Positions 1,386-6,472 of a DNA stretch of 53,159 bases are shown in pieces. The stretch is from Candidatus Hydrogenedentota bacterium. Its GTDB lineage: Bacteria; Hydrogenedentota; Hydrogenedentia; Hydrogenedentales; CAITNO01. Made by a program: the position numbers and the translations under genes. Under the pieces are notes generated by a model that was given only the letters and a program-made list of their open reading frames with translations, did no database searches and was not told the origin of the DNA. Every line of letters begins with the position of its first letter. The stretch's first letter is position 1. The stretch covers positions 1 through 53,159 of the forward strand of contig JAKOTZ010000246.1 in assembly GCA_029776995.1 (NCBI GenBank). The letters run 5' to 3'.

Positions 1386-2828
1386 ATGAACAGGTGGATC
1401 AGCATAACGATTTTCCCGGTTGTAATGGCCGGAATATTGGTTCAGGCGCCTGGGCGCGCGCAGGCGGAAGGAGCAAAAATGACACCCGAAAAACAGTTGA
1501 CTTTTTCCCCAAAAAACCATGACCTGGATAACAATGACAATTTTTCGGCGGATGGGCGGTTCCTCTGTTACGACACCCGGGAAATGTACGGACCATCCAT
1601 TGATAACAGCACATCCATCGAACTGCTGGAGCTCGAAACGGGACGGGAAATCGTTCTGTACCGCCCGGAACATATTGTGCTGGGAGACGCGCCCGCTCCC
1701 GGTGTCGGCGCGGTGTCTTTCAACCCCGCCCGCCCCGAAGTGGCGTTTATTCATGGACCCTTTCCGGAAGAAGTGGCATGGAGAGGCCCCTATGGCAAAC
1801 CCAACCGCTGCGGCGCGCTGGTGCCGACCGACGGGGACATCGTGAAAGCACATGATGAATGGCGCATGCTGAAGGACGGAAAACAGCAGTTGTACTGGCT
1901 GGACTGCCGGGACATCGCCAGGGACCGTCCCACTAAACCGGGAGCGCACCGGGGCGGCACCCACCGGCATGAATTCAGCCGGGACGGCAGGCGGATCGGT
2001 TTCACCTACGACGATTTCCTGCTGCCGCAATACGACCGGACGATCGGTTACATGGAACCGCATCCCAACGCTCCTGAACCTGCCCGGTGCTGGTTTGCCG
2101 TATTGGTTCGCCCCGTCCCGATGGGGCAGTCCAGGCCCGGCGAAATTGAAAAAGCTTATGGCGACTCCTGGGTAGACCCGAAAGGAACCATGCGGGCCTT
2201 CATCGGCAAAGTGCGCAACGATGACGAACAGACCTATGAGGAGTCGCTTTTCGTGGTCGAAATCCCTGATGAGGTCGACATCACCACGGCGGATTCCGGA
2301 GACGCGGAACGGTACCCTTCCCCGCCGAAAGGGCTTCGCATCCGACGGATTACGCATACCTGGGCGGGCGGCATCGTCCGGGGCGCGCCGGACGGGTCAC
2401 GGATTGCATACCTGGGAAAGGATGGGAACGGCAAACAGCAGGTTTTCGTGGTGAGCGCCCAGGGATCTGACAGGTCCGATGATCCGGCCCTGCGGCCGGT
2501 TCAGGCCAGCCGGGTAGCTGAAGGCGTCACCGGAGATATCCGCTGGCATCCCTCCGGAAAGGCCATCCTGTTCACCGCCCGGGGCGGCATTGCCGCGGTA
2601 AGCCTTGAGGGGGAACTGCCGGCGGAGGCCGTATGGCTTACTCCCTACGGAGATGGAGAGCCCAGACATGCTCCGGTGATATCGCCCGACGGGAAATGGG
2701 TCGCGTACAATCGGATCGTCCCCACCACCGACGCTGCCGGAAACCGTGTCCAGACCTGGGCGGGAAAAGACTGCAAACAGATCTTCAGCGTTCCCTGGCC
2801 GGGCCAATCCGCGGGACTTCCGGAGTGA
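1386..2828 (+). CDS. YidR-like DUF3748 beta-propeller protein, exported
   Basis: 480 residues with a probable Sec signal peptide (hydrophobic to about residue 24, cleavage near AQA/EG). From memory, the body follows E. coli YidR (DUF3748) closely: FIHGP at 121-125, GGTHRHEFS at 190-198, PGEIEKAYGDSWV at 251-263, PPKGLRIRRITHT at 313-325 and WHPSG near 387. Repeats of the type 'SPDGKWVAY' and 'DGSRIAYLG' are TolB/PD40-like propeller blades. The role of the family is not known; TolB-like propellers usually bind partners or sugars and do not catalyse a defined reaction. An AGGAG site overlaps the stop of the glycosyltransferase gene. E. coli YidR lacks the obvious signal peptide seen here, so this version probably acts in the periplasm. 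Confidence 0.8.
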   Translation: MNRWISITIFPVVMAGILVQAPGRAQAEGAKMTPEKQLTFSPKNHDLDNNDNFSADGRFLCYDTREMYGPSIDNSTSIELLELETGREIVLYRPEHIVLGDAPAPGVGAVSFNPARPEVAFIHGPFPEEVAWRGPYGKPNRCGALVPTDGDIVKAHDEWRMLKDGKQQLYWLDCRDIARDRPTKPGAHRGGTHRHEFSRDGRRIGFTYDDFLLPQYDRTIGYMEPHPNAPEPARCWFAVLVRPVPMGQSRPGEIEKAYGDSWVDPKGTMRAFIGKVRNDDEQTYEESLFVVEIPDEVDITTADSGDAERYPSPPKGLRIRRITHTWAGGIVRGAPDGSRIAYLGKDGNGKQQVFVVSAQGSDRSDDPALRPVQASRVAEGVTGDIRWHPSGKAILFTARGGIAAVSLEGELPAEAVWLTPYGDGEPRHAPVISPDGKWVAYNRIVPTTDAAGNRVQTWAGKDCKQIFSVPWPGQSAGLPE

Positions 2829-2874: not shown

Positions 2875-3792
2875 TCAGCGCGCGTTTTGGCGGTACTGTT
2901 CCAGACGCTGCAGCCAGGTGGTGTCGGAAACCCTCAGCGTAACGCCTTCCGCCCTGGGTGTTTCGGTCGGAGCGACCTGCAGCCTGGCTCGGACCGCATC
3001 GGGATAAGTCCGGACCAACGCGGTATCACCGCCATTGGATTTAAGGGACAATCCACCGCGGACCGTCCGGCCTTTTGTTTCCAGCCCGTTCCGCCGGCGC
3101 TGTTTTTCCGCCGATGAGGTACTCTTTTCTGATTTGAGGAGGGTGGCGGGATCCGTTCCGTATTCATACAGGACTACCGGCCCGTACACCCCGGTGCCCA
3201 GCTCTATTTCTTCCAGGTACGCGTCGTTCCCCGCGCGGTAATAGGCCATGGCATCCAGCCAGTCGAACGGAAGCCCCTCGAGGTAGTCCACCGCCCCGAG
3301 AATTCTCCCTTCAGAAAAACCGTCGTTATAACCGTCGGAAAATCCGCCGTCCAGATACTCCACGTGCTGATCCAGCAACAGGAATTCTTTCCATCCGGGA
3401 CCGTATCCCACGTCATATCCTTCACTGAACCCGATCGTGAACGCATCGTCGTAAGAGACGAAATAGCCGTCATTGTAGGCATACCAGACGCCGTCCCAGA
3501 ATCCGGCTTCGTAGGGAGGCGACTCCACATACGGGAGCGTTCCGCCCTGGTAATAAATCTGTCCGCCGTCCCGGGTATAGAAGCTGTCGTCATACCCTTT
3601 CCAGTAATAATCATCCCGCATAAAGCCGTCATTAAAGCCCAAATCATATTCATACTGGGCCTGGCCATCGGTATCATCGCCGGTTCCGGGATCCAGGGGA
3701 ACATACCCGTAGGGACAGCCTGTGAGCGCGGCTGCCATCCAGCCAACCGCCGCAAGATGCACCCACGCGCGGGAGATGTTCGCGATACACAT
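2875..3792 (-). CDS. Lipoprotein with Gx3 aromatic repeats, unknown function
   Basis: 305 residues. A lipoprotein signal ends in LTGC (Cys26). Residues 47-165 are very rich in Gly, Asp, Tyr and Phe, arranged as short Gx3G units such as GFNDGF, GFWDG, GFSEGYDVGYGPG and GFSDGYNDGFSEG. The C-terminal third is different: basic and polar, with no aromatic repeats. Gx3 repeats are known from Yae1/Lto1 and FliH, where they make packed helices; whether that applies here is unknown. The gene starts 25 bases after the stop of the FecR/DUF6600 gene on the same strand, so the two are probably one operon and one surface system. No catalytic motif is visible. Confidence 0.72.
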   Translation of the reverse strand: MCIANISRAWVHLAAVGWMAAALTGCPYGYVPLDPGTGDDTDGQAQYEYDLGFNDGFMRDDYYWKGYDDSFYTRDGGQIYYQGGTLPYVESPPYEAGFWDGVWYAYNDGYFVSYDDAFTIGFSEGYDVGYGPGWKEFLLLDQHVEYLDGGFSDGYNDGFSEGRILGAVDYLEGLPFDWLDAMAYYRAGNDAYLEEIELGTGVYGPVVLYEYGTDPATLLKSEKSTSSAEKQRRRNGLETKGRTVRGGLSLKSNGGDTALVRTYPDAVRARLQVAPTETPRAEGVTLRVSDTTWLQRLEQYRQNAR

Positions 3793-3817: not shown

Positions 3818-6472
3818 TCAGCGCATACGGCTGAAGCCGCCAGAATTGCTGTTTCTGACCGATGGCATGGATGGCGCGCGCACTGGAGCCACGCGGGGAG
3901 AAAAGCCGCCGGAAGGACGTGATCCCCCTGAAACGCCTACCGGGATTTGCACAGACGACTGGTGGCGGGGCATCTCTACCCGGGGCGTGTTCACGCGCAA
4001 AGCATCAACGCGGGGGGACTCAACAGATCCGCCCCCCCGAGATATTTCCGGCGTAAAGGAAGGAATCCGGGACGTCACGGGCGGCCGAAGCCGACCCACC
4101 TCAGAGAGACCTGACACGGACGACCGATTTTCCGTAACAGAGGGCAGGGAAGTTCCTGAAAGGCTGTTCGTCCGGGACTCCCCAATCCCCGAGCGCGGCG
4201 CAGACAGAGATGGCAGATCGAAGCCAAAACTCCGGGTAGCCGGCCTTGTCGGCGTGGTAGTCCGGGGTCGGGTAGTGTCCGTTTGTCTATTTGAACCGGA
4301 AGACGGGCGGGAAGGCGGTGTCCTCGGCGTTGAAGTTCCGCTGCTGGAACCCCTGCTACGCCCAGGCAACATGGGGGAGGCAGGCTCCATATCCCGAACG
4401 GCCACCCGCGGCGAAAACGCATCGGACGGCGATGTCCGCAAGCTGTCCGGAGCAGATACGGATTCCCGCGGAGCAGTCTGAGAAGGCCTGGAATTCGAAA
4501 TTTCTTGCAGTTGTGACCGAATATGGGCTGAATCCCGAACCGCCGACACGGGTTCGCGGTTAAGCGACTCCGCCCCAACTGAACGCGGCGGCAACGTTTC
4601 ACCACCACCAGACCGGTCTATATTGACCAGCGGAGCATGGGGTGTACGATTGTTCAGGGTAGGAACGCTTTCCCTGTTGGGCGCTCGCCGTTCCGCGGGC
4701 AGCGCGGGACTCGCCCCACCGCCTCTGGGGGTACGAACCGCATACGCCTGCCTGGGCACGGCTTTGCTGTCAGCTGCCCCACTGGTACGCCCAGCAACTG
4801 CAGTTTCCGGCAAAACGGCACGGTCCCGGATGGCACCCGCACGGGCGTCCCCCGCGCCGGACGTCCGGGCTGTATTGCCGATGTTCCCGTAATCAGCCCG
4901 GGCCATTTGGGTCCGGATTCGGCGGTCTATCCCGCCTGACGGAGCATCGGCGGTAAGGTCCCCCGACAGGCGGACTGACCGCGGTGTTCCGGCCATGCTG
5001 TTCCGCGCGGACGGCAGCCCCGTCCGGACTGCACGATTTCCGCCATCAACCGCCGCGCGTTCAGTCATAACAGGCTGGAAAGTTGAGCGCGCGATTCTGG
5101 ACTCCAGGGTCTGCGCGCGCGCTGCCGGCGCCGTATTTTCCGCAAGTAGGGTCTGCGGCACGCCGCGGATACTCCGGGACGGATTGTAGTCCCGCACCCT
5201 GATGGAATCGGCGGGATACACGGGCCGAGGTATCCGGCGCTGATAGGTTGGGTTGACATAAATGTTCCAGATGTTGACCTGGGTTGCCGGGACTGTCCGC
5301 ACCACATCCACGATGACGGGCGTGGCGGGATATACTACTGCGCAACCCGTGGTAACATACGTCGCAGGCATCCAGCTCACCGCGGACAGGCTGAACGTGA
5401 GGCTGCCCACGCTGAAGACCGCAGTATCGGCCACGAGCACAGGCCTGGCATAAAAATCGCAGGGTGCCCACAGGAAACGGTCACCGACGCTGACCGTCAC
5501 GGCCCACGCCGGGCTCCAGACCGGATCATAGGTCCATACCCATCCGTACGCGCTTACATACCGCCAGCGCCCATAATGCGCGGTCACGTAGCAGAACGGA
5601 TACGCGCCCACCCAGACATGCCCCACCACCGGCACATAATTCCAGTAACCGTACCGAAACGGAACATAATCCACCACGACCGGCCGCCAGTACGGACGAT
5701 TGTCAATATAGACCCAGGTGCCATTCGCGGCCAATTCCGCCGCGCCGATGGCAGAGACCACCGGAATCTCCCGGGGAAGCGTTTTCACGCCGTTGGCCAG
5801 CAGTTCCGCCCGGTCAGCATTCCACTTGTCGAACGCGTCGGACTGGTTCCGGTCAAAAGCGACAGGATCCGAAGGCAATAGCCCCGGATCAATCCATACG
5901 CGGTATCCCTGGGATACCCGGACCGCACCGCCATTGTCCGTGCGCACCTCAGCGCTCCCCCACCGCACCGTCACCGTAACGCCCCCATTCTGGGCGATGT
6001 CAATCCGGGCGGCGCTGTCCGCGAAAATTTCGACGGTGCAGGCAGGGGTCTGCATCAGGCATTGTCCGGGAGCGCCCACCAGGCGCTGGACATAAAAGGA
6101 GCCCACCCATCCCCTGAACTGGAATGACGGCGTCAGCGCCACCAGCTCCAGTTTGCTGGCATCCGCCATGCGCAGGTAGGTTCCTCCCGCAAATTCCAGT
6201 TCCGATGCACCGCCTTCGTCTACCCAGAGGGTATCCCCCGGCAAAGCGAGCGTGTTGATCGACGCCCGGGCCCAGTCTGAGTCATTAAGCCCCCTGACCA
6301 GCATACCCCCTCCGTCGAAGCTGATCCTACCGTGAGGCGGCGGCGCCACTTCATCCGCTGATCCCACAGCGGCTCCTCCGGTTACAGAAAGCAGCAAAAC
6401 ACCTGAAAGAATGGCGTTAAGCGTTCCCCGGATCACCTTCGGCCGCAGGTTTAATCCATATCCGGTGTCCAT
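3818..6472 (-). CDS. Secreted FecR/DUF6600-type protein with a long disordered tail
   Basis: 884 residues. A signal peptide spans roughly 1-39. Residues 48-190 look like a FecR-type beta domain (LPGDTLWVDEGGASELEF, then VTVRWGSAEV). Residues 250-340 are extremely rich in Trp and Tyr (GTWVYIDNRPYWRPVVV, RYGYWNYVPVVGHVWVG, YGWVWTYDPVWSPAW), the pattern of DUF6600. From about 430 to the end there are some 450 residues of low-complexity sequence rich in Ser, Arg, Pro and Thr and probably disordered, ending NSNSGGFSRMR. The tail is positively charged and could contact cell-wall or surface polymers, but this is inference. It is the first gene of a two-gene minus-strand unit with the Gx3 lipoprotein. 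No sigma or FecI-like gene is adjacent, so a classical FecR signalling role is unlikely. Confidence 0.72.
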   Translation of the reverse strand: MDTGYGLNLRPKVIRGTLNAILSGVLLLSVTGGAAVGSADEVAPPPHGRISFDGGGMLVRGLNDSDWARASINTLALPGDTLWVDEGGASELEFAGGTYLRMADASKLELVALTPSFQFRGWVGSFYVQRLVGAPGQCLMQTPACTVEIFADSAARIDIAQNGGVTVTVRWGSAEVRTDNGGAVRVSQGYRVWIDPGLLPSDPVAFDRNQSDAFDKWNADRAELLANGVKTLPREIPVVSAIGAAELAANGTWVYIDNRPYWRPVVVDYVPFRYGYWNYVPVVGHVWVGAYPFCYVTAHYGRWRYVSAYGWVWTYDPVWSPAWAVTVSVGDRFLWAPCDFYARPVLVADTAVFSVGSLTFSLSAVSWMPATYVTTGCAVVYPATPVIVDVVRTVPATQVNIWNIYVNPTYQRRIPRPVYPADSIRVRDYNPSRSIRGVPQTLLAENTAPAARAQTLESRIARSTFQPVMTERAAVDGGNRAVRTGLPSARNSMAGTPRSVRLSGDLTADAPSGGIDRRIRTQMARADYGNIGNTARTSGAGDARAGAIRDRAVLPETAVAGRTSGAADSKAVPRQAYAVRTPRGGGASPALPAERRAPNRESVPTLNNRTPHAPLVNIDRSGGGETLPPRSVGAESLNREPVSAVRDSAHIRSQLQEISNSRPSQTAPRESVSAPDSLRTSPSDAFSPRVAVRDMEPASPMLPGRSRGSSSGTSTPRTPPSRPSSGSNRQTDTTRPRTTTPTRPATRSFGFDLPSLSAPRSGIGESRTNSLSGTSLPSVTENRSSVSGLSEVGRLRPPVTSRIPSFTPEISRGGGSVESPRVDALRVNTPRVEMPRHQSSVQIPVGVSGGSRPSGGFSPRVAPVRAPSMPSVRNSNSGGFSRMR

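What the first reader, a model, noticed from the sequence alone, without database searches (positions are those of the whole stretch)
2875..3792. Lipoprotein built on Gx3 aromatic repeats
Residues 47-165 carry many GFxDG/GYxxG units (GFSEGYDVGYGPG, GFSDGYNDGFSEG) after a lipobox. Gx3 repeats in Yae1/Lto1 and FliH form packed helices; here they are on an exported lipoprotein, which is unusual. Its gene partner is a FecR/DUF6600 protein.
Basis: partly seen in the sequence, partly recalled or inferred. Interest (0 to 1): 0.5.

Follow-up and report, generated by a model that had tools for sequence, protein, structure and literature searches.

The report
Acidic GX3-helix lipoprotein with FecR/DUF6600 partner
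A membrane-anchored, strongly acidic helical protein built on a strict four-residue glycine-aromatic repeat is kept, almost always next to one particular partner gene, across a little-studied bacterial phylum, and probably holds that partner's product at the cell envelope.

Summary
The ORF at 2875-3792 (-) encodes a 305-residue lipoprotein (Cys26; GCP in 30 of 30 homologues) whose residues 49-167 carry a four-residue repeat: small, aromatic, x, often Asp/Glu. Its run of ten tetrads arose in 0 of 20,000 shuffles; spacing is conserved in 31 aligned sequences. AlphaFold2 predicts helices (pLDDT 81.7); no PDB or viral fold match. The grammar resembles FliH and Yae1/Lto1 GX3 helices, but membership fails (Yae1_N 16.8 bits, cut-off 27.5). 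The gene is found in 52 of 68 genomes of the window's phylum (Hydrogenedentota by record titles of relatives) and 0 of 127 others. In 48 of the 52 it follows a FecR/DUF6600 gene; the other four lie at contig edges. The core is very acidic (mean -32, 11 invariant acids); the partner has an Arg-rich, Lys-poor tail (mean +32). Best reading: an envelope lipoprotein anchoring the partner, possibly through that tail. Family and pairing are shown; binding is inferred, and basic DUF6600 tails also occur without such a lipoprotein. Interest moderate.

The parts
2875..3792 (-). GX3 lipoprotein gene (305 aa)
   Evidence: ORF; homologues in 52 of 68 phylum genomes
3715..3792 (-). signal peptide and lipobox cysteine (residues 1-26)
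   Evidence: GCP in 30 of 30 rows; helix 4-23 in model; no signal-peptide program was run
3577..3648 (-). first two GX3 stretches (residues 49-72)
   Evidence: G52, G56, G66, S/G70 columns; helices 43-57 and 60-72
3403..3516 (-). long GX3 helix (residues 93-130), small residue every fourth position from G97
   Evidence: helix 93-129
3358..3372 (-). invariant DxHxE (residues 141-145)
   Evidence: D141, H143, E145 invariant in 31 rows
3280..3345 (-). fourth GX3 stretch (residues 150-171), G150/154/158/162/166
   Evidence: helix 151-171
2878..3147 (-). less conserved C-terminal region (residues 216-305), with a low-confidence stretch about 235-258 and a confidently modelled end
   Evidence: median pairwise identity 0.305; pLDDT
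3818..6472 (-). partner gene: FecR/DUF6600 protein (884 aa), probably exported; 25 bases lie between its stop and the lipoprotein ATG
   Evidence: N-terminal helix 14-36 in the L035 copy
5873..6334 (-). FecR-like region of the partner (about residues 47-200)
   Evidence: FecR at E<=1 in 16 of 24 members, not in the window copy; beta strands 48-194 in the L035 copy
5456..5737 (-). DUF6600 domain of the partner (residues 246-339)
   Evidence: 51.8 bits, cut-off 27
3821..5185 (-). Arg-rich, Lys-poor tail of the partner (residues 430-884; window copy residues 431-884: R 13.9%, K 0.2%, net +30)
   Evidence: tail of the L035 copy nearly all under pLDDT 50

Best explanation
A phylum-specific envelope module of two neighbouring, probably co-transcribed genes. 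The second gene makes a lipoprotein that is exported, lipidated at Cys26 and tethered to a membrane. Its mature part is an acidic, aromatic helical domain whose GX3 tetrads let helices pack closely through backbone-glycine and aromatic contacts, and whose 11 invariant acidic residues make a fixed negative surface. It most likely holds the first gene's product, a FecR/DUF6600 protein, at the membrane, with the partner's long Arg-rich, Lys-poor disordered tail as the probable ligand (salt bridges and Arg-Tyr contacts). Shown by computation: family, lipobox, repeat, pairing and charges. Inferred: export and lipidation in the cell, co-transcription, helix packing, binding, and the tail as the contact site.
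For: DUF6600 upstream on the same strand in 48 of 52 genomes with the gene; the other 4 lie at contig edges. Median gap 42 bases, range 13-171, in 27 pairs. No third gene recurs in most loci (30 loci plus window). Four of 68 genomes lack both genes. Core charge mean -32 (range -41 to -24) in 30 members, mean 0.7 Lys per core; 26 of the 30 most acidic 169-residue stretches among 174 ORFs of 250 aa or more from these loci belong to this family. Partner tail mean net +31.6, R 15.4%, K 0.55% in 25 copies. Core charge follows tail Arg count after tree correction (r -0.39, P 0.022, 25 contrasts). The core is the most conserved part of the module (median pairwise identity 0.64-0.68, against 0.52 FecR region, 0.61 DUF6600 region, 0.26 tail). 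Tetrad grammar (62.7% Y/F/W at x1, 48.0% D/E at x3, 381 tetrads) resembles that described for FliH GxxxG repeats, where x1 was suggested to serve helix-helix contact (PMC2674601, passages); GX3 glycines of Lto1 were shown to matter for Yae1-Lto1 pairing (PMC4523923, passages).
Against: Basic tails are general among DUF6600 proteins: 14 of 16 loci outside the phylum are net positive with no such lipoprotein nearby, so the tail need not have evolved for this partner. Net-charge correlation is not significant (raw P 0.077; tree-corrected P 0.10), and base composition also tracks core charge (raw P 0.048; tree-corrected P 0.12). AlphaFold2 of both L035 proteins as one chain left the tail nearly all under pLDDT 50, showing no docking. 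One unpaired second copy in the phylum (L086) also has a Lys-free tail.
Confidence: 0.42

Rival explanations
1. The GX3 helices pair with copies of themselves, and the lipoprotein forms a homo-oligomeric scaffold in the envelope; the FecR/DUF6600 protein is only co-expressed or decorates it.
For: GxxxG with aromatic x1 was proposed or shown to serve protein pairing in FliH and Yae1-Lto1 (passages). Four GX3 stretches lie in one domain and the long run has ten consecutive tetrads in the window protein.
Against: The monomer model is already largely confident, so the repeats may only pack within the chain. The near-strict gene pairing is left without a reason.
Confidence: 0.25
2. The domain binds metal (calcium, iron or another divalent ion), using its invariant acids and the DxHxE loop; it stores, senses or is stiffened by the ion.
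For: Eleven invariant Asp/Glu and an invariant D141-x-H143-x-E145. The acidic positions are fixed one by one rather than only in sum.
Against: No match over cut-off to any Pfam or NCBIfam family, metal-binding or other.
Confidence: 0.17
3. It is a periplasmic export chaperone that keeps the sticky Arg-rich partner soluble before it reaches its site.
For: Opposite charges and near-strict pairing.
Against: The lipid anchor gives no special support; DUF6600 proteins outside the phylum mostly have basic tails and no such helper within about 6 kb (16 loci, some cut by contig ends).
Confidence: 0.1
4. It is a membrane-embedded glycine-zipper lipoprotein (SlyB-like, recalled) or a true relative of Yae1/Lto1 or FliH.
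For: Gly at every fourth residue; Yae1_N at 16.8 bits.
Against: The GX3 helices are too polar for a bilayer (best 19-residue hydropathy in any member 0.67). Yae1_N and FliH are far below their cut-offs; no fold match.
Confidence: 0.03

Closest known systems
FliH / YscL GxxxG repeat helices (Trost and Moore 2009, PMC2674601, passages seen)
   Same: Consecutive GxxxG tetrads with Tyr/Phe favoured right after Gly and Glu frequent at x3; helical
   Different: Flagellar export protein; here a lipoprotein, with Asp the commonest residue at x3; NCBIfam FliH 11.7 of 192 bits
Yae1/Lto1 deca-GX3 proteins, PF09811 (PMC4523923, passages seen)
   Same: About ten consecutive GX3 units; GX3 used for protein pairing there
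   Different: Eukaryotic cytosolic Fe-S adaptors; profile below cut-off; here the small residue is Gly, Ala or Ser; lipidated, acidic and paired with FecR/DUF6600
Glycine-zipper outer-membrane lipoproteins such as SlyB (recalled; not tested by profile beyond the Pfam and NCBIfam scans)
   Same: Lipoproteins with Gly every four residues, so GX3 on a lipoprotein is not unique
   Different: Those helices are hydrophobic (recalled); these are aromatic and acidic
DUF6600/FecR proteins (PF20245, PF04773)
   Same: The partner is a DUF6600 member by profile
   Different: 14 of 127 genomes outside the phylum have DUF6600; their 16 loci show no GX3-aromatic ORF nearby
phrog_4785 (PHROGs, unknown function)
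   Same: Weak match of residues 97-137, E 0.0056
   Different: 18.2 bits over the repeat only; no function known; not followed further

Membership tests
Yae1_N (PF09811) | Score over the curated cut-off (27.5 bits) | tested here: not met
   16.8 bits; 3 of 31 members at E<=1; in whole-genome scans the lipoproteins of G058 and G007 gave 20.0 and 16.6 bits
Yae1/Lto1 deca-GX3 | Ten consecutive GX3 units | tested here: inconclusive
   Ten consecutive small-residue tetrads in the window protein, seven of them Gly; column 113 breaks the run in many homologues
Yae1/Lto1 | Cytosolic adaptor between CIA complex and Rli1 | tested here: not met
   Signal peptide and lipobox Cys, GCP in 30 of 30; bacterial host. 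The function itself was not testable
FliH (NCBIfam PRK13386) | Score over the curated cut-off (192 bits) | tested here: not met
   11.7 bits, E 0.12
Bacterial lipoprotein | N-terminal hydrophobic segment followed by lipobox Cys | tested here: met
   LTGC26; GCP in 30 of 30, strict lipobox in 18 of 30; LolA in the window's own genome. Lipidation itself not testable
Glycine-zipper 2TM lipoprotein | Hydrophobic membrane-spanning GX3 helices | tested here: not met
   Mean hydropathy of the GX3 helices -0.30 to -1.61; best 19-residue window 0.67
DUF6600 (partner) | Score over 27 bits | tested here: met
   51.8 bits; 24 of 24 aligned members match at E<=1
FecR (partner) | FecR profile or fold | tested here: met
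   16 of 24 members at E<=1, not the window copy; the fused L035 model matches FecR-type structures at E about 1e-6 over about 143 columns, position in the model not given

The most novel reading that the evidence does not exclude
A phylum-defining envelope system in which a lipid-anchored GX3 helical receptor, rich in Tyr and Asp, binds Arg-rich disordered tails of a FecR/DUF6600 protein in many copies, building an extracytoplasmic Arg-Tyr/acid meshwork or condensate at the membrane: GX3 helices reused outside the cytoplasm as a receptor.
Probability: 0.13. Interest if true: 0.72.

Novelty: new variant of a known kind. Interest (0 to 1): 0.46.

Why it matters
It gives Hydrogenedentota, represented in the 30 fetched loci by metagenome-assembled genomes only, a conserved single-copy lipoprotein marker with a nearly invariant partner. 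Nothing over cut-off was found in Pfam or NCBIfam, nothing convincing in PHROGs, and no fold match in PDB or BFVD. It shows the FliH/Yae1-type tetrad grammar in a lipoprotein, so helix packing by GX3-aromatic repeats can be studied in a small stand-alone domain. It is also a lead to what one branch of DUF6600 proteins may do: searches of the open library for DUF6600 and for Hydrogenedentota with lipoprotein returned no paper.

Tried and rejected
Homology to Yae1/FliH by profile: below cut-off. Other weak profile hits, not pursued: phrog_4785 E 0.0056 and phrog_21379 E 3.6; YsdD and Vault_4 in one of 31 members each, best E 0.032 and 0.058. PADLOC was not searched. Solved-structure search with the family profile: 0 hits up to E 10. 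Foldseek against PDB and BFVD: best E 5.2 and 4.4; VIA second look at 24 chains: none at Z>=2. This does not prove a new fold. Plasmids and viral contigs (35 pattern matches, none confirmed): no relative. Wider operon: in 30 loci plus the window only the two genes recur in most loci; the next cluster is in 7 (a simple ORF caller of my own).

Lys-poor tail as a mark of pairing: partly fails. Four unpaired second copies (L081, L082, L083, L085) have 6-11% Lys, but L086 has none, and 6 of 16 DUF6600 proteins outside the phylum have under 1% Lys. Charge correlation: tail Arg count P 0.0034 raw and 0.022 tree-corrected, net charge P 0.077 raw and 0.10 corrected; only suggestive, two measures tried. 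Fused-chain AlphaFold2: mean pLDDT 54.7, pTM 0.41, no docking seen, so neither support nor strong refutation.

True absence: of the 16 of 68 phylum genomes without the lipoprotein, 12 have a DUF6600 gene. In the 11 fetched, the contig ends inside that gene (9) or 156 and 169 bases after its stop (2); the twelfth (G026) matches at base 3 of its contig. The other four (G020, G025, G055, G065) lack both; rescoring these and four more at E<=10 gave one hit at 0.8, in G020. Rows dropped: L042 (truncated) from charge and lipobox counts; L040 from the partner alignment; loci without a long partner tail from the correlation (26 of 31 kept). Papers: passages of PMC4523923 and PMC2674601 were seen; all else was seen as search listings only. 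SlyB and the +2 residue rule for lipoprotein sorting are recalled.

Full report
Observation. The ORF at 2875-3792 on the minus strand is a 305-residue protein with an N-terminal hydrophobic segment ending LTGC26-P. Residues 49-167 follow a four-residue rule: a small residue (Gly, Ala or Ser), an aromatic, any residue, and often Asp or Glu. In residues 46-170 the counts are well above shuffles: 9 GxxxG against a mean of 3.3, 12 Gly-aromatic against 5.5, and a run of ten consecutive tetrads seen in 0 of 20,000 shuffles.

Family. A scan of one genome per bacterial or archaeal species gave 30 loci: 25 with record titles naming Hydrogenedentota, Hydrogenedentes or Hydrogenedens, 4 titled uncultured bacterium, 1 titled Nitrospiraceae. 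That last contig has the same length and match position as one from genome G045, which belongs to the window's order, so its label is probably wrong. The alignment of 31 sequences has GCP in 30 of 30 rows that reach it and 48 invariant columns. Gly97, 101, 109, 121 and 125, Ala105, and Gly154, 158, 162 and 166 are invariant at spacing four; Gly150 is kept in 28 of 31. Over 381 GxxxG/A tetrads in the 31 sequences, 62.7% have Y/F/W at the first x and 48.0% D/E at the third. Eleven acidic positions do not vary (D60 in the 30 rows that reach it), and D141-x-H143-x-E145 is invariant.

Distribution. With the family profile, 52 of 68 genomes of the window's phylum have the gene, each with one match except G022, where it is split over two contigs; 34 of 38 of those at least 90% complete and at most 5% contaminated have it. 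Of 195 genomes in a wider set, the same 52 were positive and 0 of the 127 outside the phylum at E<=0.01, with at most 12 candidates scored per genome. Plasmids and viral contigs had none. All 68 phylum genomes held belong to one order, so 'phylum' here means that order.

Partner. In 48 of the 52 genomes a DUF6600 domain lies upstream on the same strand at 1.2-2.2 kb, about the length of the partner's tail. In the other four the lipoprotein lies within 0-600 bases of the upstream contig end. Conversely, 22 DUF6600 hits in the phylum are not next to a lipoprotein. Fourteen sit at contig ends: 13 of these were fetched and seen, and one, in G026, matches at base 3 of its contig. Eight are second copies in genomes that already have a pair. 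Of these eight, four (L081, L082, L083, L085) have over 4.6 kb of downstream sequence without the gene, and L086 has 591 bases without it. L084 reads through a broken frame; L079 and L080 end too soon to tell. So the lipoprotein goes with one paralogue of the partner, and I found no clear case of that paralogue lacking it; L086 is the nearest to one. Outside the phylum, 14 of 127 genomes have DUF6600; their 16 loci, with up to 6 kb each side (some cut by contig ends), hold no ORF with three or more GX3-aromatic tetrads. The pair has a median gap of 42 bases (range 13-171, 27 pairs), and no third gene recurs in most loci.

Partner anatomy. FecR profile at E<=1 in 16 of 24 members and DUF6600 in 24 of 24. 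The fused L035 model matches a putative anti-sigma factor (4m0n, E 1.3e-6) and the PupR surface-signalling domain (6ovk, E 8.2e-6) over about 143 columns; the output does not place the match, and I take it to be the beta-rich stretch at about 48-194. The partner's tail is poorly conserved (median pairwise identity 0.26), basic, Arg-rich and nearly free of Lys, and predicted disordered in the L035 copy. Of the 26 paired copies whose ends were listed, 25 end in Arg and 16 of these in RGR; some unpaired and outside copies also end in Arg.

Structure. AlphaFold2 on the family alignment gave pLDDT 81.7 and pTM 0.77, with helices 43-57, 60-72, 93-129, 151-171 and 178-186 and a confident C-terminal end; the other four models averaged 72-75. 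Foldseek found nothing credible in PDB or BFVD. The GX3 helices are too polar to span a membrane.

Mechanism. I take the lipoprotein to be the membrane anchor of the FecR/DUF6600 protein. Pairing, order, spacing and joint absence in four genomes make joint function likely. Opposite charge and the Tyr/Asp against Arg composition suggest the tail as contact. The core is unusually acidic: 26 of the 30 most acidic 169-residue stretches among 174 ORFs of 250 aa or more in these loci are this family. The tree-corrected link between core charge and tail Arg count is weak (r -0.39, P 0.022; net charge P 0.10). Against this, basic DUF6600 tails are common without such a lipoprotein (14 of 16), and the fused-chain model showed no docking. 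Self-pairing of GX3 helices and metal binding remain open rivals. Which membrane carries it is not known: LolA is found in the own genome and in 43 of 68, so outer-membrane delivery is possible. The Pro at +2, present in 30 of 30, is, from recall only, one of the residues said to hold artificial E. coli lipoproteins in the inner membrane.

Comparison. The repeat resembles FliH and Yae1/Lto1 GX3 helices in grammar, as described in passages of PMC2674601 and PMC4523923, but it is a member of neither by profile or compartment. The Yae1_N profile also rings over cut-off in 2 of 68 phylum genomes on acidic EG-repeat linkers of other large proteins, which shows how little a weak hit means.

Verdict. 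A real lipoprotein family, absent as such from the profile libraries searched, with conserved GX3-aromatic helices and a nearly obligate gene partner, confined to one phylum as far as searched. Function is inferred.

Noticed in passing
L094, L095, L096, L097, L098: Large proteins of the same phylum carry long acidic linkers with Gly every four residues (EGIPEGIEEG type, hardly any aromatics); L094 and L095 end in a shared HSADQN..SELLR..Q..NS.GYHC segment that looks like a dockerin-like or sorting end (recalled resemblance).
   Followed up: partly
L036 / L089: A contig titled Nitrospiraceae carries the gene and has the same length and match position as one in genome G045 of the window's order, so the record's label is probably wrong.
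   Followed up: partly
L052-L062, L087-L093: Assemblies often break inside the partner's low-complexity tail or at the lipoprotein, which makes the pair look absent in fragmented genomes.
   Followed up: yes
L081, L082, L083, L085: Some genomes have a second FecR/DUF6600 gene with a Lys-containing, Ser-poor tail and no lipoprotein next to it: a distinct paralogue.
   Followed up: partly
window 1386-2828 (+): The gene convergent with the lipoprotein carries DUF3748 and a PD40 repeat, probably an exported propeller protein (inferred).
   Followed up: no
window 3821-3841: 25 of 26 listed paired partner proteins end in Arg, 16 of them in RGR, although the tail is otherwise hardly conserved; a possible sorting or binding end.
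   Followed up: partly
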